From IMG/VR virus record IMGVR_UViG_3300017709_000022, positions 1 to 26,373 of that record: a DNA stretch of 26,373 bases, one strand, 5' to 3'. The DNA comes from a virus. Numbering within the stretch: the first letter of the stretch is position 1; every line of letters begins with the position of its first letter. A program made the position numbers and the translations under genes. Of this stretch, positions 624-26,373 are shown one piece after another. The notes under the pieces are model-generated. The model was not told the origin of the DNA. It searched no databases and saw only the letters and a program-made list of their open reading frames with translations.

Positions 624-726
624 TGGCCGGCTTTATACATTTCAAGAGGTTTCGATGATCGGTAGAGGCCAGAAGTATTATAGTCAGTATGTCTGGCAAC
701 GTGCATTAATTACCGGACAGAAATGA
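496..726 (+). CDS. Lipoprotein, candidate outer-membrane spanin (Rz1-like)
   Basis: The product is 76 aa with a classical lipoprotein signal: basic start (MTWRMR), hydrophobic core (LISWLALVML) and lipobox LPSC with Cys at residue 20, leaving a mature peptide of about 57 aa. ATG 496 is preferred over the in-frame TTG at 493 because a GGAG motif at 484-487 sits 8 nt upstream of the ATG. The gene overlaps the coiled-coil gene at 423 in a different frame, and its stop overlaps the amidase start (ATGA). A lipoprotein embedded in or overlapping an Rz-like gene in a lysis cassette is the hallmark of o-spanins, which fuse the inner and outer membranes in Gram-negative hosts. The mature part is not strikingly proline-rich, so the family match is by architecture. 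Confidence 0.6.
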   Translation: MTWRMRLISWLALVMLLPSCGLNGSQKELNASSYDPPVITLTDGRLYTFQEVSMIGRGQKYYSQYVWQRALITGQK

Positions 727-1328
727 AATCAATATTTAAAAAGCTAATAGCTATCTTCTCGCGCAAACCAAAGCCGAGGATCAAGAAGGTATTGATTTGT
801 GTGGGCCACTCTAGAATGGGCGATAAAGGCGCTGTGAGCCGAGGCAACGTCAGTGAGTGGGCTTATAATCAATACGTGGCTGAAAAGCTACGAGAGAAGC
901 TTATAGAGCGTTCTATATCATGCACGGTCATTAGCGAGACTCCATTCAAAGGGTATCACAAATCCTGTTCGTATTTAGCCGAACAGTCTTGGGGTTACGA
1001 TTGCGTAATTGAGCTGCATTTTAATTCTCATACGGCAAGCGCAAATGGCTTTGAGTATCTGTATTGCGCCGGCAGCGAAAAAGGTAAAAAGCTAGCAGAG
1101 TCATTTCGTAAAATCCACTCGGAGGTTGTTCCAGGACAGAAGGATAGAGGCGTCAAGGCGATTAGCCAAGGAGGTAGAGGCTACAGGTTCTTATCCAAAA
1201 CTAAGCCCCCAGCCGCTATATGTGAGCCGTTCTTCGGCAGCAATGCCAAGGAGTGGGTTTTATATGAGGGCATGGAGTCGGAGCTAGCTCAGATCTATTG
1301 CGATGCTCTGGTTGATTACTTGGCGTAA
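723..1328 (+). CDS. N-acetylmuramoyl-L-alanine amidase (endolysin, Amidase_3 type)
   Basis: The product is 201 aa and should cleave the amide bond between N-acetylmuramic acid and L-alanine of the stem peptide. The Amidase_3 zinc and catalytic residues are visible in order: H29 in VGHSRMG, E45 in NVSEWAYN, H99 in ELHFNSH, and the catalytic Glu168 in ICEPFFG. The first 22 residues are basic and mildly hydrophobic (KKLIAIFSRKPKPRIKK), not a clear signal peptide, so release by the upstream holin is expected. The catalytic domain fills the rest of the protein and there is no separate wall-binding domain. It is the last gene of the lysis cassette, and the A-run after its stop is the T-tract of a terminator for the opposite strand. 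Confidence 0.88.
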   Translation: MKSIFKKLIAIFSRKPKPRIKKVLICVGHSRMGDKGAVSRGNVSEWAYNQYVAEKLREKLIERSISCTVISETPFKGYHKSCSYLAEQSWGYDCVIELHFNSHTASANGFEYLYCAGSEKGKKLAESFRKIHSEVVPGQKDRGVKAISQGGRGYRFLSKTKPPAAICEPFFGSNAKEWVLYEGMESELAQIYCDALVDYLA

Positions 1329-2640: not shown

Positions 2641-3291
2641 ATGAACGAAATAACACAAAATAAGAAGGGCAACGCTTTACAAGAGCTTGCGGAGCGATTG
2701 GGCAGCAACTCAAAAAGGACTGCTGAAATACTAAAAGCTACGGCTTTTAAGAGCTGCAAGAACGATGAGCAGTTCGCATCATTGGTAATCGTGGCTAACA
2801 CCTATGGACTAAACCCCTTACTAAAAGAGCTTTACGCTTTTCCTGGCAAGGGCGGTGAAATTGTTCCAATTGTCTCTATTGACGGCTGGCTTCGGATTAT
2901 TAACGACCATCCCCAAATGAACGGGATGAGCGAGGAGTGGGCCGAGGATGGTTCTTGGTGTGAAATCAAGATACACCGGAAGGATCGTGAGCATCCTACC
3001 ACGCATCGGGAATACCTAGAAGAGGTCAAGAGAAACACTGAGCCTTGGAAACAACATCCTCGCCGGATGCTTAAATGGAAATCGATCATCCAATGCGGGC
3101 GAGTAGCCTTTGGGTTTGGCGGTATCCATGATGAAGATGAAGGACGCGACATCGCCGGTTTCCGTGACGTAACGCCGGCTTCTCCGGTTACAAGAGTTCG
3201 CGAAATCGCGGTTGATCCTTTTGAGGATGTGATTGAGACAGATGTTGAGCCGGACACTGAGGATTTGTTTAGTCAGGAGGTATCGAAATGA
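2641..3291 (+). CDS. bet: RecT/Bet family single-strand annealing protein
   Basis: The product is 216 aa. It should bind ssDNA and anneal complementary strands, working with the adjacent 5'-3' exonuclease in phage recombination. Visible family features are an N-terminal helical segment, then FASLVIVANTYGLNPLLKELYAFPGKGGEIVPIVSIDGWLRIINDHPQMNGM, which is the most conserved RecT/Bet core (NPLLKELYAFP, IDGWLRI), and a later tract of basic and aromatic residues (RMLKWKSIIQCGRVAFGFGGIHDEDEG). The acidic C-terminal tail (DPFEDVIETDVEPDTEDLF) is typical. Its length is somewhat short but within range (lambda Bet is 261 aa). Its stop overlaps the start of the exonuclease gene, giving a coupled exo/bet pair. 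Confidence 0.9.
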   Translation: MNEITQNKKGNALQELAERLGSNSKRTAEILKATAFKSCKNDEQFASLVIVANTYGLNPLLKELYAFPGKGGEIVPIVSIDGWLRIINDHPQMNGMSEEWAEDGSWCEIKIHRKDREHPTTHREYLEEVKRNTEPWKQHPRRMLKWKSIIQCGRVAFGFGGIHDEDEGRDIAGFRDVTPASPVTRVREIAVDPFEDVIETDVEPDTEDLFSQEVSK

Positions 3292-3929
3292 TCGTCCATG
3301 ACGACATCAAGCAAGGCTCGGAAGCGTGGGAGCAGATCAGGCTCGGGAGGGCTACGGCTTCACAGGCTAGCAATATCCTGACTCCTACCGGCAAGCTATC
3401 AACCAGTCGTATTAAATACGCTCGGAAGCTAGCGCGAGAATGCCGTGTGAGCGATCCTATGGTGTTTGCTGGGAACAAGTTCACTGACTGGGGTAACGAC
3501 CATGAGAACGAGGCTAGGGAGCTGTTTGAGTCGATGATGGGCTACCAAGTCACCGAGGTTGGGTTTGTTACTCGCAACGACAAGATTATCGGATGCTCGC
3601 CGGACGGCTTAATCATGGATGAAAATGGGAACTATGACATGGGCTTGGAGATAAAATGTCCACAAGTAGATAAGCATACTGAGTATCTCATGGAAGGAGT
3701 GTTGCCAAAGGAATACAAGCTTCAAGTCCATTGGAGCATGGCCGTCACCGGCATTAAGACATGGTGGTTTATGAGCTATTTCCCTGAGACTAATCCTCTC
3801 ATCATTAAGGTTCAAGCTGACGAGTTCACTGATCTTGTCTCACGCGCACAAGATGATTTTATTCCAGAATACCGAGAGGTAGCTGAGCAGGTTAAGGAAG
3901 CTCTTTTTGGAAAGGTGGTAATTCGATGA
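3288..3929 (+). CDS. exo: YqaJ / lambda Red exonuclease-type 5'-3' nuclease
   Basis: The product is 213 aa, close to lambda exonuclease (226 aa). PD-(D/E)XK nuclease residues are visible: D106 in GCSPDGL, E121 and K123 in LEIKCP, and Q146 in YKLQVHWSM. The N-terminus carries the family's QGSEAWEQIRLGRATAS motif. It should degrade the 5' strand of duplex ends, exposing ssDNA for the upstream annealase. The strong ribosome-binding site CAGGAGGT precedes ATG 3288, which overlaps the annealase stop. The pair supports recombination-dependent replication or repair of the phage genome. Confidence 0.9.
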   Translation: MIVHDDIKQGSEAWEQIRLGRATASQASNILTPTGKLSTSRIKYARKLARECRVSDPMVFAGNKFTDWGNDHENEARELFESMMGYQVTEVGFVTRNDKIIGCSPDGLIMDENGNYDMGLEIKCPQVDKHTEYLMEGVLPKEYKLQVHWSMAVTGIKTWWFMSYFPETNPLIIKVQADEFTDLVSRAQDDFIPEYREVAEQVKEALFGKVVIR

Positions 3930-9456: not shown

Positions 9457-9759
9457 ATGAATAAATACTTATACAAAGTCATTGCCACCTCAGATGAGAC
9501 CCCTTGGGCTAAGGTTGAGCTTACTTATTGCAAAGTAAACAAATGGTTTGAGCATCATCGCCTAGTAGAGGATTATGAGTTTGAGTCAGAATCAGAGGCT
9601 ATAGAGATTTTAAACAAATCTTTAGATAAGTTTGATTCTGATATGATGCTTCGTGTAGAGCTTTGGGATCATCCTGATTATCACGACATCTTTGGATACG
9701 ACTCAATCACGGTGTACGAGAAACCAGGAGAAAAAGATTTGACGATGTGTGAGAATTAG
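9457..9759 (+). CDS. Unknown acidic protein, 100 aa
   Basis: The frame opens at GTG 9421, but ATG 9457 gives a natural start (MNKYLYKVIATSDETPWAKVELTY) that does not overlap the 26-aa peptide frame. The protein is acidic and soluble with DYEFESESEAIEILNKSLDKFDSDMM and DHPDYHDIFGYDSITV. No family is recognised. It is the last gene before the strong terminator, so it ends the early operon. Confidence 0.5.
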   Translation: MNKYLYKVIATSDETPWAKVELTYCKVNKWFEHHRLVEDYEFESESEAIEILNKSLDKFDSDMMLRVELWDHPDYHDIFGYDSITVYEKPGEKDLTMCEN

Positions 9760-9770
9760 ATACAACCTTT

Positions 9771-9785
9771 GCAGCAGCTTGCTGC
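9771..9785 (+). other. Short perfect hairpin upstream of the terminator
   Basis: GCAGCA, loop GCT and TGCTGC form a 6-bp hairpin with a short TTT after it. It sits just after the stop of the preceding gene and may protect the transcript 3' end or act as a weak first terminator. Confidence 0.35.
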
Positions 9786-9820
9786 TTTGTGTTTAATTCA
9801 TATTATTAGTGTGTAACAAG

Positions 9821-9857
9821 CCGGTCCGAGTATTAAGTTGCTCGGGCCGGTTTTTTT
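9821..9857 (+). terminator. Strong rho-independent terminator between early and late modules
   Basis: CCGGTCCGAG (9821-9830), loop TATTAAGTTG, CTCGGGCCGG (9841-9850), then seven T (9851-9857). The 10-bp stem has one G-U pair. It separates the replication/early operon from the terminase genes. Confidence 0.9.
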
Positions 9858-9866
9858 GTTTATATT
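9838..9866 (+). promoter_or_regulatory. Candidate late promoter overlapping the terminator
   Basis: TATATT (9861-9866) is a good -10 box, 17 nt downstream of TTGCTC (9838-9843), which matches only the TTG of the -35 consensus. It would start transcription about 1 nt before ATG 9874 of the small terminase. It shares the ATG spacing (36 nt) of the other candidate promoters here. The weak -35 may need an activator. Confidence 0.4.
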
Positions 9867-9873
9867 TAAAAGC

Positions 9874-10239
9874 ATGGCAGGAGGACGACCGACAAAATAC
9901 AAACCAGAGTTCTGCGAGATCGCTATTGAGTGCGGTAAGCAAGGCATGGGCAAAGCAGAGATCGCGTCTAAGCTTGACGTCTGTCGCGATACATTGCTTG
10001 AATGGAGCAAAAGTAAGCCTGAGTTTTCCGGCGCCATAAAAAGGGCTGAAGAAGAATCCTTAGCTTGGTGGGAAAAACAGGGTAGAACGGCAACCTTCGG
10101 TCAAATCGATGGCTTTAATCCAACTAGCTACATATTCCAGATGAAGAACCGGTTCAGAAACGATTGGAGAGACAAGCACGATCACTCCGTAGAGGTCTCC
10201 GGCGAGATTGAGATCGTGATCGGAGGAGAGGATGAGTGA
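9874..10239 (+). CDS. terS: Terminase small subunit
   Basis: From ATG 9874 the product is 121 aa (MAGGRPTKYKPEFCEIAIECGKQG). The start RPTKYKPEFC and helix-turn-helix (KAEIASKLDVCRDTLLEWSKSKPEFSGAIKRAEEE) are the usual N-terminal DNA-binding region of small terminases that recognise the packaging site. Later, GFNPTSYIFQMKNRFRNDWRDKHDHSVEV is a common motif of this family before the C-terminal part that contacts the large subunit. It is the first gene of the late module, directly after the terminator, with TerL 228 nt downstream. The open frame upstream of 9874 lies in the terminator and is not coding. Confidence 0.85.
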   Translation: MAGGRPTKYKPEFCEIAIECGKQGMGKAEIASKLDVCRDTLLEWSKSKPEFSGAIKRAEEESLAWWEKQGRTATFGQIDGFNPTSYIFQMKNRFRNDWRDKHDHSVEVSGEIEIVIGGEDE

Positions 10240-10486
10240 GGTGACATTTGAAGAGGTTGAGAAGCTTGGCCAGGTTGAGAGCTACCTAGAGGCTGAAGGC
10301 TTCCACAACATCACCTCGTTTGCCGAGATCACTGAGGGCGACAGGGTGATAGTAATGATCGCTTCAGATACCCCTAAAGAAATCAACGTCTTCGGCATTT
10401 GCTGGAGCGCTGATCATTTTCAGAAACTAAGTGTTAGCGATATTCGCAACGATTTTATGACGGCATATGGCGACGAACAAGACTAG
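10232..10486 (+). CDS. Unknown small acidic protein between the terminase subunits
   Basis: The product is 84 aa with a strong ribosome-binding site (GGAGGAGAGG) before ATG 10232, overlapping the small terminase stop. It is acidic, with AEITEGDRVIVMIASDTPKEINVFGICWSADHF. No family is recognised. Its position between small and large terminase genes is consistent with a packaging accessory role, but position alone is not evidence. Confidence 0.55.
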   Translation: MSEVTFEEVEKLGQVESYLEAEGFHNITSFAEITEGDRVIVMIASDTPKEINVFGICWSADHFQKLSVSDIRNDFMTAYGDEQD

Positions 10487-11771
10487 ACTAACGCTGAAGC
10501 CTCGGAACTGGGTCAGGCCATACTTGCAACGGACAGAGGATAGGGCCTGCTTAGTGGTGCATCGAAGGGGCGGTAAGAGCTTTGGATGTTTGCAGGATCT
10601 CATTCTTAAATGCCACACCCATACGCGCAAAGGGTTGAAGTCATCGCCTCTACGTTACGGATACTTCGCTCCTACTCAAGCTCAGGCCAAAAAGATCGCT
10701 TGGAGTTACCTCAAGACCTTTACTCATCAGATACCTGGTGTGATCAAGAACGAGTCGGAGCTATGGATTCGCTTCCAGAACGGGGCAGAGATCGGGCTTT
10801 ATTCCGGTGAGAACTATGAGCGAGCAAGGGGACTCTACTTTGATGGTGTAGTATTGGACGAATACGCCGACATTCCACCAGACGCGTGGGAGTCAGTCAT
10901 AGAACCGTGTCTTTTAGACTACAAAGGTTGGGCCACGTTTGTTGGGACGCCCAAGGGTAAAAATGCTTTCTGGAGAGTCTACCAGCACTCGCTCAAAGAC
11001 CCTGAGTGGTTTTCCCTCTGTCTAAAAGCATCTGAGAGCGGTCTGATCCCGCCTGATCAGCTAGCTAGGATGAAAGCTACAAGAGACGCTAGTGTGTTTG
11101 AGCGAGAGTTTGAATGCTCTTTCTCATCTGACATACCTGGAACAATCTACGCCAAAGAGGTGGAAGACGCGCTGAGGCTAGGTCATGTTTGCGATTTTGA
11201 GCCTAACAGAGTTCCGGTATGGACGACCTGGGATATTGGGTCTCCAGTGAACACTGCAGTGATTTACTTCCAGCTAGAAGGCCTGAGAAGAACGGTAATT
11301 GACTGCGACATATCAGCCAGCATGACGTTAGAGGAGCGTGTTGGACATATGCAGGCTAAAGGATATGACTATGGCGGTCACCTACTGCCACATGACTCAG
11401 CAGCTAGACAGCCTAATGGACTCACGTTCGCAGAGGAGCTACGGAAGGCTGGCCTGTCAAACGTCCAGACAATCCCAAGGACACACGACAAGGAGCTACG
11501 CATTAACGCGACAAAGAAGGCGTTTCCGAATATTTGGTTCAGAGATAAACAAACCACTCATCTCAGAGACGCTCTGAGTCAATACCATTACAAGGAAGCT
11601 ACCGATGGAACTGGATGGATCACAAACAAGATCTCTCACGGCTGGGAGTCTCATCCATCTGACGCATTCTCAATGTTGGCAGAGGCAGAGCTGCACGATA
11701 TGCTGACCGATCAGCAGTCACACACTAAGCGCCGGCGTAGGCCACGCATCAATGCTGGGTCTGGATACTAA
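10467..11771 (+). CDS. terL: Terminase large subunit
   Basis: The product is 434 aa and packages DNA using ATPase and nuclease domains. The Walker A-like motif is RRGGKS (residues 33-38), a deviant form usual in terminases; Walker B is VVLDEYAD (D131-E132), with the downstream coupling segment FVGTPKGKNAFW. The C-terminal nuclease domain shows D256 in TWDIGSP, D310 in LPHDSAA and D399 in HPSDAFSML. The length is normal for this type. It overlaps the previous gene by 20 nt, and has no clear ribosome-binding site of its own. The tail is basic (RRRRPR). Confidence 0.95.
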   Translation: MATNKTRLTLKPRNWVRPYLQRTEDRACLVVHRRGGKSFGCLQDLILKCHTHTRKGLKSSPLRYGYFAPTQAQAKKIAWSYLKTFTHQIPGVIKNESELWIRFQNGAEIGLYSGENYERARGLYFDGVVLDEYADIPPDAWESVIEPCLLDYKGWATFVGTPKGKNAFWRVYQHSLKDPEWFSLCLKASESGLIPPDQLARMKATRDASVFEREFECSFSSDIPGTIYAKEVEDALRLGHVCDFEPNRVPVWTTWDIGSPVNTAVIYFQLEGLRRTVIDCDISASMTLEERVGHMQAKGYDYGGHLLPHDSAARQPNGLTFAEELRKAGLSNVQTIPRTHDKELRINATKKAFPNIWFRDKQTTHLRDALSQYHYKEATDGTGWITNKISHGWESHPSDAFSMLAEAELHDMLTDQQSHTKRRRRPRINAGSGY

Positions 11772-17056: not shown

Positions 17057-19742
17057 GTTTTTGCAGTCTAACTTTAATGGTGAGTGGTCTCCGCTCATGC
17101 TTGGCCGTGTAGAGCTGTCACGATACGCTACATCGCTAAGAACGATGGAGAACTTTGCCCCGACCATACCTGGCGGCGCGAGAAAGCGACCTGGCACTGA
17201 ATACATTGGCGAAGTCAGAGACTCATCAAAGAAAACACGGCTTGAAAGCTTCACGTTTTCTAATGAGCAATCTTATTTGCTAGAATTTAGCGATATAAAG
17301 TTACGGTTCTGGAGAAACGGGGTGTTATTAGGCGATATTAAAACAACTCCCTACACTGAGAATGAGGTGTTTAGCCTAAGAATGACATCAACAAACGACA
17401 TTGTCTATATTGCCTCGCCTAATCATGCTCCCTACAAGCTAACCAGAACATCTGACACTACGTTTGATTTTGCAGCGCTTGAGTTTGAGAACCAGCCGTT
17501 TGAAGACGAAAACCTTACAGATGTCACTATAAGCGCGTCTGCGGCAACAGGCACAGGTATAACCTTAACGTCTTCCAGTAATTTGTTTACTGACGACATG
17601 GATGATGGCGATGGAAGCACGTTTAAAATTTCTCACTATGTGCCAAGAACTGTATTAGAAAGCTCTATTAATGAATCTAAAGTAGAAAAAATAAGCGCAA
17701 ACGAATTTGATAATCAAACTAGCTATCAACCAAATGATGAAGTTTGGTTTGAAGTTAATTCAACAGTTTTTTATTACACCTGTCATACAGCATACACTGG
17801 AGGAGCTTCTACAGAAACAAATCCTATTAATTTAAATGGTTATTTTTCTACTGGTGTAGTTGCAGAAATTTTAGGGACAACTTCCGATGTAATGAAATTT
17901 TACATTGAAGGAGAGTGGTCGTTCAGGACAGAAGGTAACTGGGATGGAGAATGGGGTATTCAAGAGTCTGATGATGGGCTTCTTAACAATTGGATAACTA
18001 GATTCTCAATGGCGTCTTACAATGGTTCTGATAACTACGTCCGAGAGGGTGATGAGTCGGCCAATCCAGTTTGGCTTCGTGTTGTATTATTTAATACTGC
18101 TAGCGGAACAAACCATAGAGTTACGTGGACAACTGCGGATGTTGAAAAATCAGGAGAAGTTACAGTTACTGGTTACACTTCTCCGACACAAGTCACTGCT
18201 AATGTAAGCACAACTAGGCCACTTTATTCTACGGCAGCAACTAAACACTGGTCAGAAAATGAGTGGAATTATAGAAAAGGGTTTCCAAGTCAGGTGTTCT
18301 TTAAAAACAACCGGCTTTGTTTTGCTTCTACTAAGGCAGACAACCAAGCTATTTGGGGAAGCGAGGTAGATAAATGGGATAACTTTAAGCGTGGCATACA
18401 AGAAGACTCGCAGCCATTTAAAGACGTTCTAAGGACCGGCAACCAAGATCCGATACAATGGGTATCTGAGCAGTCAAAGACGCTTCTGGGGCTATCCTCG
18501 CAGATAAGAAACCTAACCGGTGAAGACGGGTCATCTATTCTAGCGCCAGGCAAAAACAGCTCGGCAAGACAAGCCGGTCGCGGCGCTGCTGACCTTGAGC
18601 CTGTAGAGGTTGATGACTTTACATTCTACGTCCAGCTAGGAGGCAGGATTATCAGAGGTCTCACAAACGATTATGAGCGTGGCGTTTACGCTGCTGCTGA
18701 TATGACTAGAGAGGCTGAACACGTAACTAGAGGTGGCGTCAAGCAAATGGCGTTTCAGCTAAACCGTGTTTCTACGCTCTACGCCGTCACAGGAGAGGGT
18801 ATCGCTGCTTGCCTAGTGTTTGATCCAGAAGTGGAGAAAATGGGATGGTATCGCCTTAAAACGCAAGGAGGGACAATTGAGTCAGTTGCTATCCTTCCGG
18901 CTACCGGAGAAGAAGACGAAGTCTACTTTGTAGTCAAGAGAACCATCAACGGAAGCACCAAGCGCTACATTGAGAGGCTAAAAAACGATCAGATCAGAAT
19001 TCAAGATGACGGCCTACAGGACGATATGTTCTATGTCGATTGCGGCACTACGATTACCGGAGCTAATATTTCTACAAATTCCACAACTAATGTTACTACA
19101 ATTGCTGGATCGACTCACCTAGAAGGTAAAGAAATACAGATTCTTTTAGACGGGGACTATTTTGGCAAGAAAACAGTAAGCAGCGGGTCTGTTACGATAC
19201 CTACTATTACTAATGATGATTTCAATAACGCATCTTCATACAAAGTAGGGGATCGCGTAAGGTTTTTGTCTAGCGGAACCTTTACTTACTTTGTTTGTGT
19301 TCTTGCATACACTGGAGGTGATTCTACGCAAACTAATCCGGCATTAGCGGTGGATTCAAATTCAAATCCATACTTTGCTGCTAGCAAGGCAACTTGTGGC
19401 TTACCTATTGAAGCTAAGCTGTGGCCAATGCCGTTAGAGGGCATTACAGCGTCAGGAACGACCTCTGGAGACAAGAAGCGAGTCAAAGAGATTACGATTG
19501 ACGTTATGAACTCACTAGGAATCCAGACAAAAGACTCACCGGATGACACTAAGGAGCCTACAGATCTTACTCCAAGACAGTCTGATGCAGACCTTGGATC
19601 ATCGCCGGCACTCTATAGCGGCAAGCTTGAAGTCAGAAATACTTTGCCAAGATCGTTTGATGGTAATGTTTTTTATCAATCAGATATTCCTTTTGGCGTA
19701 TTTATCCGTAACATCATTACTAAATGGGAGAAGACCAGCTAA
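17049..19742 (+). CDS. Tail tubular protein B (T7 gp12-like) with CBM-like repeats
   Basis: The product is 897 aa, longer than T7 gp12 (794 aa). The N-terminus (QSNFNGEWSPLMLGRVELSRYATSLRTMENFAPTIPGGARKRPGTEYIGEV) and SFTFSNEQSYLLEFSDIKLRFWRNG are characteristic of this beta-propeller nozzle protein, as is QVFFKNNRLCFASTKADNQAIWGSEVDKWDNF. Two related insertions (about residues 220-262 and 725-767) carry SY..ND.V ... YY..CH.AYTGG.ST.TNP, like CBM5/12 sugar-binding repeats, and their DNA is richer in A/T than flanks. It forms the tail nozzle and may touch host polysaccharide. It overlaps both neighbouring genes. Confidence 0.85.
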   Translation: MPEFLQSNFNGEWSPLMLGRVELSRYATSLRTMENFAPTIPGGARKRPGTEYIGEVRDSSKKTRLESFTFSNEQSYLLEFSDIKLRFWRNGVLLGDIKTTPYTENEVFSLRMTSTNDIVYIASPNHAPYKLTRTSDTTFDFAALEFENQPFEDENLTDVTISASAATGTGITLTSSSNLFTDDMDDGDGSTFKISHYVPRTVLESSINESKVEKISANEFDNQTSYQPNDEVWFEVNSTVFYYTCHTAYTGGASTETNPINLNGYFSTGVVAEILGTTSDVMKFYIEGEWSFRTEGNWDGEWGIQESDDGLLNNWITRFSMASYNGSDNYVREGDESANPVWLRVVLFNTASGTNHRVTWTTADVEKSGEVTVTGYTSPTQVTANVSTTRPLYSTAATKHWSENEWNYRKGFPSQVFFKNNRLCFASTKADNQAIWGSEVDKWDNFKRGIQEDSQPFKDVLRTGNQDPIQWVSEQSKTLLGLSSQIRNLTGEDGSSILAPGKNSSARQAGRGAADLEPVEVDDFTFYVQLGGRIIRGLTNDYERGVYAAADMTREAEHVTRGGVKQMAFQLNRVSTLYAVTGEGIAACLVFDPEVEKMGWYRLKTQGGTIESVAILPATGEEDEVYFVVKRTINGSTKRYIERLKNDQIRIQDDGLQDDMFYVDCGTTITGANISTNSTTNVTTIAGSTHLEGKEIQILLDGDYFGKKTVSSGSVTIPTITNDDFNNASSYKVGDRVRFLSSGTFTYFVCVLAYTGGDSTQTNPALAVDSNSNPYFAASKATCGLPIEAKLWPMPLEGITASGTTSGDKKRVKEITIDVMNSLGIQTKDSPDDTKEPTDLTPRQSDADLGSSPALYSGKLEVRNTLPRSFDGNVFYQSDIPFGVFIRNIITKWEKTS

Positions 19743-20128
19743 CCTTGAAACCTTATTTTCCAGAACATTATCCATTGCTTTGCCAATGGTGGGACTCACA
19801 CGGCTCTCTGAGGGCTAGTAGGTCTGATTTGGAGTCTGGTATAGGATTGTTGGCAGAAAGCGATTCTAGGCCCGTTGGAGCGTGTTTCTTGTATGTTACA
19901 GGAGCGCTTGGGTTTATTGAGGCTATGGTTATTAGCCCTGACTCAACTGTGTCCAAGTCTAGAAAGATTGCTGACACTTTATTTAAGGAGTTACAAAAGA
20001 TAGCCAAGGCAGAAGGCGTCAACAAGCTAATCGCTTTTGTTCAGTCTAAAGGCATGGTCAGGGAGTGTTCTCGCTCAGGTTTTACACAAGTCGGGCCACC
20101 TATGGCGCAAATGGTTCAAACAATATAA
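19724..20128 (+). CDS. GNAT-like N-acetyltransferase in the tail module
   Basis: The product is 134 aa. Features of a GNAT domain are visible: strand PVGACFLYVTGALGFIEAMVISPDSTVSKSRKIADTLFKELQKIAKAEGVNKLIAFVQSKGMVRECSRSGFTQVG, that is, the beta4 strand IEAMVISPD, the helix of the acetyl-CoA site with a nonstandard S-x-S-R-K-I, then the FvqskgmvRec.rsGF end. The usual Q/RxxGxG/A motif is not clear. Such proteins are common between the tail tubular B and internal virion protein genes of podoviruses, with an unknown substrate. Its start lies 19 nt inside the preceding gene. Confidence 0.7.
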   Translation: MGEDQLTLKPYFPEHYPLLCQWWDSHGSLRASRSDLESGIGLLAESDSRPVGACFLYVTGALGFIEAMVISPDSTVSKSRKIADTLFKELQKIAKAEGVNKLIAFVQSKGMVRECSRSGFTQVGPPMAQMVQTI

Positions 20129-20132
20129 AGAA

Positions 20133-20615
20133 ATGGCAATTCCTTTAGCTTTACAAGTAGCAAGCACCGCAATGAAAGTGGGTGCATCAATTCAACAAGG
20201 GCAGATGGCAATGCAGTCTGCTAGGTATAATGCAAAAGTCATTGGGCGACAGGCTGAGCAAGAGGCAGAGGCTTCGTTGGAAAGCATGGCTCGCAAAAGA
20301 ACTGAAAACGAAAGAGCATTATCATCGATCAGGCTACGTATGCAGGAGTCTGGACTTGATACGACTCAGGGATCTAGCGCGGATTACTTTGACGAGGCCA
20401 CTTCAAGACTTGAGTTACAGATTCTAGACGAAGCTAGGCAGTCAAATTTTAGAGATAGGGCAAGGCGAAACGAAGCTCAGATGCAGATTTATCAAGGCAA
20501 AGTAGCAAGAGCTAACGCACAAGCTACAGCAATGGGTCAACTCATAGGAGGAGCAGCCAAAATCTCCGGCAAAATGGAAGATGTGGCTAACGCATCAAAA
20601 ACATCAAATACTTAA
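20133..20615 (+). CDS. Internal virion protein, T7 gp14-like position
   Basis: From ATG 20133 the product is 160 aa; the extension back to 20037 would lie inside the GNAT gene. It begins with a weakly hydrophobic segment (AIPLALQVASTAMKVGASIQQG), then a long helical region (ARYNAKVIGRQAEQEAEASLESMARKRTENERALSSIRLRMQESGLDTTQGSSADYFDEATSRLELQILDEARQSNFRDRAR). The 'R.A...G.d...GS...' motif is typical of T7 gp14-like proteins that line the head interior and are ejected to form part of the DNA channel. The end is Gly/Ala-rich. The assignment rests on both pattern and position. Confidence 0.75.
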   Translation: MAIPLALQVASTAMKVGASIQQGQMAMQSARYNAKVIGRQAEQEAEASLESMARKRTENERALSSIRLRMQESGLDTTQGSSADYFDEATSRLELQILDEARQSNFRDRARRNEAQMQIYQGKVARANAQATAMGQLIGGAAKISGKMEDVANASKTSNT

Positions 20616-20618
20616 GTT

Positions 20619-22271
20619 ATGCCACAATTACCAAATTTAACAGGGCCAGCAGTCCCTCCAGAGCAGGCAGCAGGAATCAGAGTTGGAGTGCCTTCTACTT
20701 CTGGTTTGCAAGCAATAGCGCAAGCTGTTGGATCGGTAGGCGAGGAAATGCACGCTGCTAAGATGGAAATCTTGCAAGAGCAAAACAAAATTGACGTTTT
20801 GCGAACTGAAAGCGAATACGGCGCTTTTATGGAGGCTGAGCAGCAAAAACTTAACTTCAATAATCCTTCTAGCTGGGACGATCAGTTAACAAAAGCATCA
20901 AAAGCATTTAAGGACTCCCTAGCCTCCAAGAATCTATCTGCTGACGCAATGAGTTCTCTTAATACGAGGCTTATGGCGTACGAACAGAAGATTATGAGAA
21001 GCGCACAAAGAGACGCTCGCCTTGCTCAAGTTCAAATTATATCTGGAGAGTTTCAGAACCGGCAAGATTCTTATCTAAAAAACAGGGATTATGAAGGAGC
21101 TATAGAGAACCTTAAAGAGTCAGCGTATAGCCTAAAGATGCAAGATCACGAAGTGGAGAGTCGTGTATCAAGAATTAGAGAACAACAAACCTTAGATGCA
21201 TTGCAAGATGCTGCATACGATGGGAATGTTGCTGTTTTTGAAAAAGACATACCTGGTATTTCAAAGGCTCAACAAAGAGCATTAAAGTCATCGGCAGAAA
21301 GCGCTTTAGCTAAAAAGAAAAGAAACCAATCTATTGCTGCAATGGATGGTATTTATGCGAATTCTATTAACACAAAAGAAGATATTCTTCGCGTAGCTCC
21401 AGACCTAGGCGCGGCGCAAACAGCAAAGCTTCTTGGTGTTATTGAGGGTAGAGACAGCGATGAAAGAAACAGAATTATCGCTACTCCAGAATACCAAAAA
21501 CAATTAATTGGAAATGTTTCTGCACTTATACGAGACTATGATCCAAACGGAGAAGATGCGGATGCTAATTTTATCAACATACTAGATCTGTCAGAACAGA
21601 TTGAAAGCAGTAACTACAAAGACCATTTGCAAAATCAAATTGAGGATATTCGCAACGAAGTCAAAGATAAGATTAAGACAAAAAAAGATTATATGTTTAA
21701 CGAAGTCGATGAACTGTTTAAACAAGATTTACCTTTTTTGGAAATTCCAAAAGAACCAATAGGCAAAGCGCTTGGAACTTATTTAGAAGAGGGAATACTT
21801 GAAGATCCAGTAAGACTTAATTCTTTTGGTTTTAAAAATGAACACGCGCAAGCAATAGCTAAAGCAGCAAAAGAAGAGCAAAAAGCCAAAATGGAACCAA
21901 AGGGTAAAAATCCTTATAAAGGCCCATCTTCTATTGATTTGTTTCGTAGGTATTACAGTAGTGGCGAAAAAGCTGTTGAGGATTTCAGTCTTAAAGAGAG
22001 AGAAGTTCTTGAAGCTATTTTCCAATACAAAGGCCCAACTACTATGATTGTAGATCCTCCAGAAAAACAAAAATACGAAAGAGAGCTTAACGAATATGAA
22101 AAACAAAAATCAATTGCTTATGGATCTTATAAAGCAAGGGTTTCTCAGTGGATTAGGCTTAATCCTGATTTCACAATCGAAAAAGCTGATGAATACCTTA
22201 AAAGCTTAAATATTGATATTGAAGGACTCTCTGAATCAAAAAGCAATTTAGTAGCGCCTCGTCCAAAATAA
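20619..22271 (+). CDS. Internal virion protein, T7 gp15-like position
   Basis: The product is 550 aa. The opening (PQLPNLTGPAVPPEQAAGIRVGVPSTSGLQAIAQAVGSVGEEMHAAKMEILQ) with a proline/glycine start and then a helix is common in phage core proteins of this position. Most of the rest is predicted helix or coiled coil (AEQQKLNFNN ... KASKAFKDSLASKNLSADAMSSLNTRLMAYEQKIMRSAQRDARLAQ), with a KAKMEPKGKNPYKGPSSIDLF hinge. No enzyme motifs are seen. It probably belongs to the ejected core that helps DNA cross the envelope. The DNA of this gene is visibly richer in A/T than the structural genes before it. Confidence 0.7.
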   Translation: MPQLPNLTGPAVPPEQAAGIRVGVPSTSGLQAIAQAVGSVGEEMHAAKMEILQEQNKIDVLRTESEYGAFMEAEQQKLNFNNPSSWDDQLTKASKAFKDSLASKNLSADAMSSLNTRLMAYEQKIMRSAQRDARLAQVQIISGEFQNRQDSYLKNRDYEGAIENLKESAYSLKMQDHEVESRVSRIREQQTLDALQDAAYDGNVAVFEKDIPGISKAQQRALKSSAESALAKKKRNQSIAAMDGIYANSINTKEDILRVAPDLGAAQTAKLLGVIEGRDSDERNRIIATPEYQKQLIGNVSALIRDYDPNGEDADANFINILDLSEQIESSNYKDHLQNQIEDIRNEVKDKIKTKKDYMFNEVDELFKQDLPFLEIPKEPIGKALGTYLEEGILEDPVRLNSFGFKNEHAQAIAKAAKEEQKAKMEPKGKNPYKGPSSIDLFRRYYSSGEKAVEDFSLKEREVLEAIFQYKGPTTMIVDPPEKQKYERELNEYEKQKSIAYGSYKARVSQWIRLNPDFTIEKADEYLKSLNIDIEGLSESKSNLVAPRPK

Positions 22272-22306: not shown

Positions 22307-25300
22307 ATGGAACCTGAATATCAAGGACAGCCAATAACAACTCCTGACGCGCCTCCATATGTGCCAGGTGTAACAGATCAAAGGTATGCTCCAGAAAGAG
22401 AGGAGCCTATTGAGCCTATTACAGTTCCTGATGATCCTCCGTATGTTGAAGGAGTTACAGATAAAAGATATGCTCCAGAATTTAAAGGAATTACAGATCA
22501 AGGGCTTGCTCCAAAAGTTCAAGAAGTTTCGGAATTTGTAGAAAAAGCCAGCGCCCCTGCTGGAATATCTACTCCTGATCTTTATTATTTAGGTGCAGAC
22601 GCTATTGCCAATAGTGGATTATCTCAGATTGAAAGTGAAAAGCTTGTTGCTCAAAACAACTGGGTAAGAGAGTCCTTGGGTAATATCGAAAGTGCTGTTT
22701 TAGATTACGAAAACTTTTTGCCAGAGTCAACTGAGCCAGTTAAAAACCGAGCATTAATTAGAGCTACTATGGAGGTAGAGCTTGGTTATGATCCTCCAAC
22801 AATTTTTGAATACGAAACAAGTAGAAATCAAGCTTACAAGAAATTGTTTGGTAAAGATCTTTCTGAAGATTTAGGAGATCCTGAGCAAGCTTTTGTTAGC
22901 GCTTTAACTAATAGAGCTGTAATTAAAAAAGAGGATTTTGAATTTTATAAAAAAGTAGATCGTCAGGCAACTCTTTCAGCAATACTTGGAGATGGGTTAA
23001 TAGAGCTACAGTTTGGAGAATCCGTAAAAGATGACCCTGCTTTTATTCGTCAAAAAGACAAAGCAATTAAGCGTTGGGCGGAAACACAAGAAGCAATTAG
23101 CGACCAATATGGGGACATGATCCCAAAGCTTCGCAAAACATTTCGCCAAATGCAATCTGGGGATGAATGGATTACTCAGGCTGGTTCTGTAGCTAGAACT
23201 TTAAATGAAGAAGATAAAACAAAATTTCTTCAAGTTCTTAGAGATTTAGCAGTAACATACCCAACTGAAGAGCTAGAGAGCGGCTTTAAAAAACTTGGTT
23301 TAAACCTAAAGAAATCGGGAAGAGGTGTGTCTGGCGCTATTGATGCCGCTATTGTAGGAACAGGAGATATAGTAAGAGAAGGCGGGACTGTTTCTTTGGC
23401 GGATTTGTTTGGGGGCGGCGAGTGGTATGCTAAAGAACAAGAAAGAAAAGCCGCTGATGCAAAATGGGCTGCTGCTTATCGCAAAGAACAAGACTTTGTA
23501 GCAGATGTTCGCAGAATATTTGAAGAAGATTATGATCCTATCAGACCTTTGGCAGAAAAAGGATCTACGTTAAGAGCTGTTGAAGAAGGTGTTTATGCAA
23601 TACCTGGAGCTGTTACTACTACAGCAATGGCGTTTGTGCCGATAGCGGGAATGACTGCCACATATGGAACAATTAGAGAATTTGAAAGGCAGAAGTATCG
23701 TGGCCGATTAATTGCAAATGGCGTTCCTAGAGAAAAAGCCGCTGAAATAGCAGGAGTTCTATCTACCGTTTCTGCCGCCCCTCAAGTTTTACTTGAGAAG
23801 CTGCAAGCAAATATAGTTGGAGGAAAATCTCCAATATTTTCAAAAGTATTAGGAAAAGTTGACGGCTTACTAAAAACTAAAGCTACAAGGTTTACCGGTA
23901 GATTTTTAGCAGCAAGTTTAGGCGAGACTACTATTGAGTTAATGCAGGAGCTTACTTCTGAAACTGTTCAAGATCTTGCAAGCGAACTGCAAAAAGAAAT
24001 TCCTGACATTGAATGGAAAAACGGAAAAGATGGATACTTTGATGGTTATTTTAACAAAACCATTACAACATTTGTAGCCGTTGCCCCATTGTCATTTATA
24101 CCGGCAGCAAGAGGGCTGTCTGCTGATAATAGAGCCGCAGCGATTAAGACGACCTCGCCTCTTGTTAGAAAGGCTTGGGGCTTTAAACCAGAAGACAATG
24201 CCGCTATTGATGATGCTAAAACTCCAAGCGAAACAACAAGTGCTGTAGAAAACGCTTTAACAAATCGTGATCCACAATCAGAAAGCGCAAAGGAGGCAAC
24301 TGAAGAGTTAGAACAAAAACTTAAAAAAGAACAAGAAGCTTTAAAGCAATTAGAAGATTCTGGAGTTATTCCTAGCGTTAGAGCTTCTAAAGATAATAAA
24401 GGTTTTGAGGTTTATGACGCACAAACTGATGCGGTTATTTCTTATGCTGATACAGCCACTGAAGCAACCGAGGCTGTTCTTAATACAATAGGAATGCGAG
24501 AAAACGCAACTCAGGACGTTATTGACGAAATGAGTTCTCTTATTGAAGCCGCAAAACAAGTTTCAAAAGAGACTGGAGTTACTCAGGAGATTTCTCCTAC
24601 ACAAATTGTAACTCCCGAAATGGCAAATAAAATCTTTCCTGAGTCAGCTAGGAGGATAGCAGAAGAATCTAAGTTAATTGAGGTTGCGGAAGGAGGCACT
24701 GGTGCTGTAACTGAGGCTGTTTTTAACCCACAGCAAATTGTTACAGGTGTAGCAATACCCAAAGGCATACAGGGAAGAATTGAAGATGTGACAAAACTTT
24801 ATGGTGGATCTAATATTTTCACACTTGTTCACGAAAGATCTCACCATGTAAGGAGAGAGTTAATTGCGCGAGGAGAGCTTAGTGAAGAAAGGCAAATTTC
24901 ATTTTTCAGAAAGCTTAATGCTGAATTAAAGGGTCGAAAAACTAAAACAGGGCAAGCTGTAGAGTTTAAAGGTCTTAGTGGAGATACTGTTACAGAGACA
25001 GCCTTAGATGAAGCGTGGGCGCATTTTGCAGAAATTGCAATTTTGCGAACAAGAAACGGTAAAAAATCAAAGCTTAGAAGCTTGTTAAACAAAAACCTTT
25101 CCGCAATGGTTAGGGCTAATGTTCCAGGCGCTCGTCAGTTCAAAGCGTTCATTAGAGCGATGAAGGACTTTTTTGCTTTAGACCTTACTAGAGCAGTAAT
25201 TTTACAAAAAGCTGTAAGAGACGGCAAGCTTGACGCAGCAGAAATGCAAGAGTTTGAAGCAATGGTTTTAGGAGAAACCCTGCAAGAGCAACACGAAGAA

Positions 25301-26373
25301 CAAGTCTTACAGTCTAGGGAAGAATTAATTCAGCAAGAAGGCCCATCGTTTTCAGTGACTGAAGATTTTACTGGAGTTATTGAAGCGAATAAAGCTATTA
25401 GCAAAACTGTTTATCTAAAAAACAAAACAAAGTTTCAAGAAGCAATAAAGAATGGAACAATTGAAACAGGTGTTGATGTTTTTTCATTTAGTGGAATGGA
25501 TATGTTTTTACACGCCCCTGATTTTGCTTTTGCTGGCGAAGTCAAGGTAGGTGATGAAACTGTATTCAAAGGCAAAGGCGGCGTTTATTACCCAGTGTTA
25601 TTTTCTGACGGAAACTATTTTTGGGCTTCTACTGAAAGCGCTGTTAAGAAAATGGTTAAAGATCTTAATGAAATTGGAAGAAGAAACGGGGGAAAGGTTT
25701 TAATGGGGCTAGTTTCCTCTCCTGCTGACAAGATGTTTAGCTCAACATTAATTGCTAGGGGAATGATTGATTTCTTTGTTGAATTGAGTAGTCAAAAACA
25801 ATTTGGTCTTTCTGATTCTGTTTTAAACAAAGCTATCAAAACAGCTTCTCAAGTTTCTGATAAAGGAAAAACTTTTGACAAGAAAATATTTTTAAAGTCA
25901 GGTTTAGAGCAAAATGTTGAAACAATTAAAGAACTTTTGGACGCTCAAAAATCTTCATTTGGTTTACGTAAAAACTTTAGTCTAAAATTTGCGGAAGAAA
26001 TATCAAACCATTACGGAAAGCTTGCCACAAAAGAATCAGCAGCTCTTGCAGGAGCTTTGCTAGGAGAAAGCAATATTAACGCAAACGCTGACATTAAAAA
26101 AGGTAAGCTTTCTAAAGCATCAATTATTCAAGCTCTTGGAGAAAGGTTTTCAGAAGATTTTACTAAAGAACAATTATCTCTCAACACCGGAGAAGTGTAT
26201 GCAGTAATTGAATTTGACGGTAAAGTTGGGTATGAAAAATCAGCAAAACACGAATCATATCCTTTTACTGTTGTTGGCAAAGGTAAAAACAAAGTCAAAG
26301 TAAATGTTTTGTCTGAGGCTCATCAGTGGACTGATCTTGTTACTTACTCAGAAAATGTTGAGTTTATAAAAGA
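22307..26373 (+). CDS. Giant polyvalent internal virion protein with HExxH metallopeptidase motif (partial)
   Basis: The frame is open from ATG 22307 to the window edge, at least 1355 aa. Residues about 10-69 hold a Pro-rich repeat (PDAPPYVPGVTDQRYAPE / PDDPPYVEGVTDKRYAPE). A long helical region follows with hydrophobic stretches near residues 425-458 and 585-605. Near 838-850, FTLVHERSHHVRREL gives H842-E843-x-x-H846, and E902 or E909 in LDEAWAHFAEI may be the third zinc ligand, so a zincin peptidase domain is likely. Residues about 1015-1170 (FTGVIEANKAISKTVY ... VYYPVLFSDGNYFWAST ... GLVSSPADKMFSS) resemble a polyvalent-protein-associated domain. It is probably ejected into the host. The 3' end is missing. 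Confidence 0.7.
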   Translation, partial: MEPEYQGQPITTPDAPPYVPGVTDQRYAPEREEPIEPITVPDDPPYVEGVTDKRYAPEFKGITDQGLAPKVQEVSEFVEKASAPAGISTPDLYYLGADAIANSGLSQIESEKLVAQNNWVRESLGNIESAVLDYENFLPESTEPVKNRALIRATMEVELGYDPPTIFEYETSRNQAYKKLFGKDLSEDLGDPEQAFVSALTNRAVIKKEDFEFYKKVDRQATLSAILGDGLIELQFGESVKDDPAFIRQKDKAIKRWAETQEAISDQYGDMIPKLRKTFRQMQSGDEWITQAGSVARTLNEEDKTKFLQVLRDLAVTYPTEELESGFKKLGLNLKKSGRGVSGAIDAAIVGTGDIVREGGTVSLADLFGGGEWYAKEQERKAADAKWAAAYRKEQDFVADVRRIFEEDYDPIRPLAEKGSTLRAVEEGVYAIPGAVTTTAMAFVPIAGMTATYGTIREFERQKYRGRLIANGVPREKAAEIAGVLSTVSAAPQVLLEKLQANIVGGKSPIFSKVLGKVDGLLKTKATRFTGRFLAASLGETTIELMQELTSETVQDLASELQKEIPDIEWKNGKDGYFDGYFNKTITTFVAVAPLSFIPAARGLSADNRAAAIKTTSPLVRKAWGFKPEDNAAIDDAKTPSETTSAVENALTNRDPQSESAKEATEELEQKLKKEQEALKQLEDSGVIPSVRASKDNKGFEVYDAQTDAVISYADTATEATEAVLNTIGMRENATQDVIDEMSSLIEAAKQVSKETGVTQEISPTQIVTPEMANKIFPESARRIAEESKLIEVAEGGTGAVTEAVFNPQQIVTGVAIPKGIQGRIEDVTKLYGGSNIFTLVHERSHHVRRELIARGELSEERQISFFRKLNAELKGRKTKTGQAVEFKGLSGDTVTETALDEAWAHFAEIAILRTRNGKKSKLRSLLNKNLSAMVRANVPGARQFKAFIRAMKDFFALDLTRAVILQKAVRDGKLDAAEMQEFEAMVLGETLQEQHEEQVLQSREELIQQEGPSFSVTEDFTGVIEANKAISKTVYLKNKTKFQEAIKNGTIETGVDVFSFSGMDMFLHAPDFAFAGEVKVGDETVFKGKGGVYYPVLFSDGNYFWASTESAVKKMVKDLNEIGRRNGGKVLMGLVSSPADKMFSSTLIARGMIDFFVELSSQKQFGLSDSVLNKAIKTASQVSDKGKTFDKKIFLKSGLEQNVETIKELLDAQKSSFGLRKNFSLKFAEEISNHYGKLATKESAALAGALLGESNINANADIKKGKLSKASIIQALGERFSEDFTKEQLSLNTGEVYAVIEFDGKVGYEKSAKHESYPFTVVGKGKNKVKVNVLSEAHQWTDLVTYSENVEFIK

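What the first reader, a model, noticed from the sequence alone, without database searches (positions are those of the whole stretch)
22307..26373. Polyvalent internal virion protein with a putative zinc metallopeptidase
H842-E-x-x-H846 with E902 or E909 downstream is a zincin pattern, in a protein of over 1355 aa at the end of the structural operon. Polyvalent proteins are thought to enter the host with the DNA and carry several enzymes. A peptidase could cut host wall or defence proteins at once on entry. The domain near residues 1015-1170 is also of unknown activity, and the missing C-terminal end may carry more domains.
Basis: partly seen in the sequence, partly recalled or inferred. Interest (0 to 1): 0.8.

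Follow-up and report, generated by a model that had tools for sequence, protein, structure and literature searches.

The report
Phage cargo protein with punctuated modules
The window ends inside a giant protein that a phage probably injects with its DNA: its zinc-protease site is real and conserved, and it is followed by swappable effector modules, each starting at a short conserved sequence mark that may be where the protein is cut apart inside the host.

Summary
ORF 22307-26373 (1355 aa, open at the 3' end) has H842-E-x-x-H846. In the window plus 20 relatives (23-95% identical in this domain), H842, E843, H846 and E902 are among only eight invariant residues; E909 is not. Relatives show the whole protein has about 2,100-3,300 aa: conserved N-block, zincin-like domain, exchangeable cargo (ART, kinase, GNAT in relatives; an unknown fold here, residues 1018-~1345), conserved C-block.

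New: cargo modules and the C-block begin at a short seam, [SPA]FS[ILVP] (SFSV at 1014-1017 here). 22 relatives hold 62 copies (6 expected), nearly all between N- and C-block. A related set of 19 uses NYS[IV] instead (61 copies, 0.5 expected), like another dialect. A near-identical phage carries different cargo from this seam on; the DNA match stops inside the motif.

Most likely a self-cutting cargo polyprotein: the zincin frees effectors at the seams after injection. The cutting is inferred. Against it: the other dialects occur in proteins whose zincin-like domain has lost its histidines.

Polyvalent proteins with zincins are known (Iyer 2017); I found no report of the seams or dialects.

The parts
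22307..26373 (+). Giant ORF, first 1355 residues of a polyvalent internal virion protein; runs off the contig end
   Evidence: complete relatives L003 (2819 aa), L005 (2600 aa, 5' cut)
22307..24643 (+). N-block, residues 1-779, shared by nearly all relatives; moderately hydrophobic stretches near residues 429 and 586 in the near-identical L003
   Evidence: BLAST coverage; hydropathy of L003
24644..25321 (+). Zincin-like domain, about residues 780-1005
   Evidence: alignment of 30 rows, invariant residues, AlphaFold mean pLDDT 77.5
24830..24844 (+). H842-E-R-S-H846 active-site motif
25010..25012 (+). E902, probable third zinc ligand (in L-D-E-A)
   Evidence: invariant in all 30 aligned sequences; lies in helix 897-912 of the model
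25346..25357 (+). Seam motif SFSV, residues 1014-1017, the joint between N-block/zincin and cargo
   Evidence: pLDDT below 50 here; DNA identity with L003 ends inside it
25358..26341 (+). Cargo module, about residues 1018-1345, confident fold with no solved relative; conserved H1069-x-P-D, GKGGVYYP 1089-1096, FWA 1105-1107
19724..20128 (+). GNAT-domain ORF, in the position of T7 gp13
   Evidence: Pfam Acetyltransf_1; position only for gp13
20037..20615 (+). Internal virion protein (phrog_418), in the position of T7 gp14
20619..22271 (+). 550-aa ORF directly upstream, in the position of T7 gp15; no family match

Best explanation
The protein is a cargo polyprotein built into the phage's ejection apparatus, in the gene position of T7 gp16. 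SHOWN: a conserved N-block with a conserved zincin-type active site is followed by exchangeable cargo modules and (in relatives) a conserved C-block; modules and C-block begin at a short seam motif of core [FY]S[ILVP]; cassettes are exchanged at the seams; the seam's wording is uniform within a protein, differs between lineages, and follows the N-block rather than the C-block. INFERRED: the chain is packed in the capsid and injected with the DNA; its two ends stay with the membrane-spanning ejection channel; the zincin beside the first seam cuts the chain at the seams (a bulky hydrophobic residue at P1', S|FS[IL] or SFS|[IL], would suit a zincin), which sets each effector free in the host. In lineages whose zincin-like domain lacks the histidines, something else must read the seam.
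For: Active site: H842, E843, H846 and E902 are four of only eight invariant columns of 251 in 21 sequences. Seams: 52 in 12.7k aa of variable middle against 2.9 expected, 1 in 17.0k aa of N-block, 2 in 16.5k aa of C-block; L044, which has no cargo, has one seam exactly between N- and C-block. The first seam follows the zincin domain directly, in a stretch the model leaves disordered. Dialects are mutually exclusive: 62 SF and 0 NYSI in 22 proteins; 61 NYSI and background SF in 19 others. NYSI is one clade on the N-block tree but split on the C-block tree. Nearly all proteins with intact HExxH share the SF dialect; dialects diversify only where the histidines are lost. L280, found by motif, has an upstream zincin (HEYTH), six [RK][FY]SLK seams and ART modules between them. 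Cargo domains are known effector enzymes: ART-PolyVal, Kinase-PolyVal, GNAT. Self-processing by such zincins was proposed in general by Iyer et al. (PMC5512222).
Against: Seams stay sharp and uniform in NYSI-dialect proteins whose zincin-like domain reads RDxxQ, EExxH or similar, so an intact zincin in cis is not needed for the seam to be kept. Several other large ART proteins with HExxH have no repeated seam. No cleavage was observed anywhere; no solved zincin matched the model. Proline at the fourth seam position in L005, L038 and L039 does not fit SFS|x cutting. N4 virion RNA polymerase, a polyvalent protein with a zincin, is packaged uncut (PMC5512222).
Confidence: 0.4

Rival explanations
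1. The seams are cleavage sites, but of a protease acting in trans (a host protease or an unrecognised phage protease); the zincin has another job or only helps.
For: Seams persist where the zincin has lost its histidines. Precedent: P1 DarA is cut by the separate prohead protease Pro (PMC12810830).
Against: No S78 prohead protease or ClpP in 22 related phage records, though other families were not searched and records may be incomplete. Seam wording follows the N-block.
Confidence: 0.2
2. The seams are not cut. They are docking tags that hold each module on the N-block or the core stack in the capsid, or help threading through the tail; the zincin-like domain may be what binds them, active or not.
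For: Seams and the zincin-like domain persist together after loss of the histidines, with E902 kept in 9 of 9 and E843 in 8 of 9 such sequences.
Against: Does not explain why HExxH is kept invariant over 23-95% identity in the other half.
Confidence: 0.22
3. The zincin is itself an effector that cuts host defence or wall proteins at entry; the seams are only flexible joints.
For: Iyer et al. list host targeting as a possible role of such zincins (PMC5512222).
Against: The domain lies in the conserved N-block, not among the exchangeable cargo, unlike the host-directed modules ART, kinase and GNAT.
Confidence: 0.1
4. The seams are DNA-level recombination sites that ease cassette exchange and have no role in the protein.
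For: Exchange does happen at seams: window and L003 DNA match up to TCGTTTTC of the motif and then diverge; L003 and L012 are mostly 20-40% identical before the first seam and 94-100% after it.
Against: Codons vary, including TCN and AGY serine. All seams of one protein share the lineage's dialect even before cargo that is homologous across dialects, such as GPASFSI against GPANYSI before ART.
Confidence: 0.06

Closest known systems
Polyvalent proteins with zincin-like MPTase domains (Iyer et al. 2017, PMC5512222)
   Same: Multi-domain phage protein with HExxH zincin pattern, ART, kinase and GNAT modules in relatives, encoded beside virion genes; self-processing proposed there
   Different: The repeated seam motif with lineage dialects, the fixed order N-block/zincin-cargo-C-block and the exchange at seams were not found in the passages read
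T7 gp16 ejection protein (PMC8954989)
   Same: Gene position at the end of the head and core genes; large, last of the core proteins
   Different: Twice as long, no detectable sequence match, no transglycosylase match, carries exchangeable cargo
Phage P1 DdrB and DarA
   Same: Injected internal proteins; DdrB has a zincin and is processed (PMC5512222); DarA is cut by protease Pro (PMC12810830)
   Different: No repeated seams described; DdrB zincin is C-terminal
Flavobacterium phage elemo 'structural protein' (MT497072, 3694 aa; L006)
   Same: Has the 1018-1345 module behind an HExxH domain (HEIFH)
   Different: No seam motifs; zincin of another type; only the module aligns well; the basis of the label 'structural' was not verified
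Viral polyproteins of eukaryotic viruses
   Same: Works like one, if the seams are cut: one chain, built-in protease, repeated short sites (analogy only)
   Different: Virion-borne effectors of a DNA phage, no homology claimed

Membership tests
Polyvalent protein (Iyer 2017) | Several domains of unlike enzymatic activity in one polypeptide | tested here: met
   Met in relatives of the same architecture: ART, kinase and GNAT plus zincin pattern. In the window itself only the zincin-like domain and one unknown module are seen before the contig ends.
Polyvalent protein (Iyer 2017) | Encoded with virion genes of a phage | tested here: met
Polyvalent protein (Iyer 2017) | Injected into the host with the DNA | not testable with these tools
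   Inferred from gene position only
Zincin-like metallopeptidase (polyvalent MPTase) | HExxH in one helix and a Glu ligand in a following helix, both conserved | tested here: met
Zincin-like metallopeptidase (polyvalent MPTase) | Zincin fold recognisable by profile or structure search | tested here: inconclusive
   No Pfam or PDB match; best viral structure match is an ART-PolyVal protein, E 1.4e-3, probability 1.00. The model shows only a two-strand hairpin where zincins have a three-stranded sheet.
Zincin-like metallopeptidase (polyvalent MPTase) | Zinc-dependent proteolysis | not testable with these tools
   needs an assay
T7 gp16-like ejection protein | Position after gp13-, gp14- and gp15-like genes, before tail fibre | tested here: met
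   following genes in L003 and L005 look like tail-fibre genes by reading
T7 gp16-like ejection protein | Sequence similarity to gp16 families or an N-terminal transglycosylase | tested here: not met
   No PHROG or Pfam hit. The transglycosylase is also absent in P22-type homologues (PMC8954989). Hence it is described as gp16-positioned, not as a gp16 member.
T7 gp16-like ejection protein | Two membrane-crossing regions | tested here: inconclusive
   Only moderate hydrophobic stretches in N- and C-blocks of relatives

The most novel reading that the evidence does not exclude
A phage effector polyprotein with a reader-specific cut code: the seam is a cleavage signal whose wording co-evolves with a reader in the N-block, and cargo cassettes move between phages but are rewritten into the receiving protein's dialect. 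It would be a plug-in slot for injected effectors that is cut open after entry.
Probability: 0.33. Interest if true: 0.85.

Novelty: new variant of a known kind. Interest (0 to 1): 0.62.

Why it matters
Why polyvalent proteins carry zincins, and how one injected chain can act as many enzymes, has been open since 2017. The seams give a concrete, testable place for cleavage, mark where one effector ends and the next begins, and let unknown cargo be cut out of metagenomes automatically. If the seam is a cleavage or docking tag it also shows how phages swap the enzymes they inject.

Tried and rejected
E909 as zinc ligand: rejected by conservation. Pfam and PDB-sequence searches for the zincin and the 1018-1345 module: only weak matches judged to be chance. 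Foldseek of both models against the PDB: nothing. Relatives in GTDB genomes: none by that scan. Trans proteases S78 and ClpP in 22 phage records: none. RYSLKD, recalled from memory as a Firmicutes seam, was searched as DNA: most hits are chance, but one giant protein (L187/L280) has six copies; it was found by the motif, so it is an illustration and not an independent test, and two relatives of it (L281, L282) lack the repeated form. The idea that every zincin-bearing polyvalent protein has seams: rejected. L052 was left out of the trees because only its ART module matches the family. Chance as explanation of the seams: rejected. The seam was first seen by eye in P0002 and P0003; later sets were retrieved by zincin, ART module or 1018-module and not by the motif, but the proteins are related, so counts are not independent events.

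Full report
OBSERVATION. The ORF at 22307-26373 runs off the contig end with 1355 residues. HExxH is at 842-846; shuffling the protein gives an HExxH in 0.5% of trials. The record is a 26,373-base virus fragment. Upstream lie terminase, portal, major head protein, tail-tube genes, a GNAT gene, an internal-virion-protein gene (phrog_418) and a 550-aa gene without family match. By order these correspond to T7 gp13, gp14 and gp15, so the giant gene has the position of gp16.

WHOLE PROTEIN, FROM RELATIVES. One contig has the same protein to residue 1107 (L002); two have it at 96% identity to residue ~1021 and are complete (L003, L004; 2819 aa); more distant ones came from scans with the zincin region, the C-block, the ART module and the 1018-module. 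BLAST coverage shows an N-block shared by nearly all, a patchy middle and a C-block shared by most. Complete members have about 2,056-3,344 aa. No relative was confirmed in bacterial and archaeal genomes by that scan, which would fit lytic phages.

PEPTIDASE. Over 21 sequences with HExxH, eight of 251 columns are invariant: G814, H842, E843, H846, G856, E902, R962, G973. E902 is therefore the probable third ligand. AlphaFold (30-row alignment, mean pLDDT 77.5) puts HExxH in helix 837-854 and E902 in helix 897-912 and leaves residues 1012-1022 disordered. Foldseek finds no solved zincin; the best viral match is an ART-PolyVal protein. The active-site pattern is thus strong and the fold unproven. 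In a distant half of the family the histidines are gone (RDxxQ, EExxH, HExxE, EEHAE, HETVE) while E902 stays in 9 of 9 and E843 in 8 of 9; one member there, L069, keeps HERTH.

SEAMS. In P0002 the string xSFS[IL] stood at the module joints. Tested on 19 proteins, [ASP][FY]S[ILVP] occurs 52 times in 12.7k aa of variable middle (2.9 expected, maximum 10 in 500 shuffles), once in 17.0k aa of N-block and twice in 16.5k aa of C-block. L044 has no cargo and a single seam, GNPFSLGP, between N- and C-block. The scan with the ART module alone returned giant relatives with a seam directly before ART, and stand-alone ART proteins of about 300-590 aa without one there. The scan with the 1018-module returned phages in which the seam reads NYSI at nearly every joint. 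Tally: 22 SF proteins hold 62 SF-type seams (6.2 expected) and no NYSI; 19 NY proteins hold 61 NYS[IV] (0.46 expected) and SF-type only at background (4 against 5.4 expected); smaller sets use TFS[IL] or SFSM. L051 mixes [FY]SI forms. Serine is coded by both TCN and AGY, so the constraint is on the protein.

READER. On the N-block tree NYSI is one clade (support 94); on the C-block tree the same proteins fall in two places, because L056 and L058 share an N-block but not a C-block. Seam wording thus follows the N-block, which contains the zincin-like domain. Nearly all proteins with intact HExxH use the SF dialect; dialects diversify where the histidines are lost. This is expected if the zincin reads the seam, but it rests on few independent events, and seams stay sharp in proteins with a decayed zincin, so an intact zincin in cis is not needed in those lineages. 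Pfam shows no other peptidase in L053, L056, L058, L066 or L100, and S78 and ClpP are absent from 22 phage records.

CASSETTE EXCHANGE. Window and L003 DNA differ at one base in the 84 before the motif, and the match ends inside it (TCGTTTTC, then divergence). L003 and L012 are mostly 20-40% identical from residue 200 to 900 and 94-100% identical in residues 1050-1400, after the first seam; L012 and L014 show the reverse, with near-identical N-blocks and different cargo after the first seam. So cargo moves between phages at seams.

CARGO. Pfam finds ART-PolyVal in many relatives, Kinase-PolyVal in L058, GNAT in L100 and DUF7178 in L056. The window's own module, residues 1018-~1345, is a confident fold (mean pLDDT 87.6) without a solved relative, with conserved H1069-x-P-D, GKGGVYYP and FWA, shared with Flavobacterium phage elemo proteins annotated as structural. 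Its activity is unknown; a host-directed enzyme is the likeliest guess from its position (inference).

MECHANISM. Best account (0.4): the chain is injected, its ends stay in the ejection channel and membrane, and the zincin releases cargo at the seams. Iyer et al. proposed zincin self-processing for the class; no site was named in the passages I read. In T7, gp16 spans the inner membrane with a cytoplasmic middle (PMC8954989), so cargo inserted in the middle would need cutting to leave; this is an analogy. The main alternatives are a protease in trans and a docking role.

NOVELTY. Zincin-bearing polyvalent proteins are known. The seam punctuation with lineage dialects was not found in the papers searched; that library lacks most subscription journals.

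Noticed in passing
L053, L055-L058, L060, L064, L066-L068, L100, L120, L138-L146, L148, L153: Zincin-like domain without the HExxH histidines but with E902 (and mostly E843) kept: apparent pseudo-peptidases in otherwise intact giant proteins.
   Followed up: partly
L280 (whole form of L187), residues 566 and 883-1731: A giant ART protein not retrieved by the family scans has an upstream zincin pattern (HEYTH) and six [RK][FY]SLK seams, several directly before ART modules: perhaps a further dialect.
   Followed up: partly
L144, residues 1018-2053: Single giant protein with a mixed SFSM/SFSI dialect and the zincin-like domain reading EEKVE.
   Followed up: no
L035 and L037, ORF 9518-11236: The giant ORF appears broken: only 573 aa are open around the HExxH and the first two seams; frameshift, assembly error or real split not resolved.
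   Followed up: no
L051, residues 826 and 1293: Two HExxH motifs in one giant protein (HEEAH and HEVMH), with mixed [FY]SI seams.
   Followed up: no
window 25358-26341: Cargo module of unknown activity, found in at least 25 further phage contigs, with a confident predicted fold and no solved relative.
   Followed up: partly
window 19724-20128 and 20037-20615: The GNAT ORF and the internal-virion-protein ORF overlap by about 90 bases as called; the TTG start of the second is probably too early.
   Followed up: no
window 723-1328; 2641-3929: N-acetylmuramoyl-L-alanine amidase (endolysin-like) and a RecT/YqaJ recombination pair upstream.
   Followed up: no
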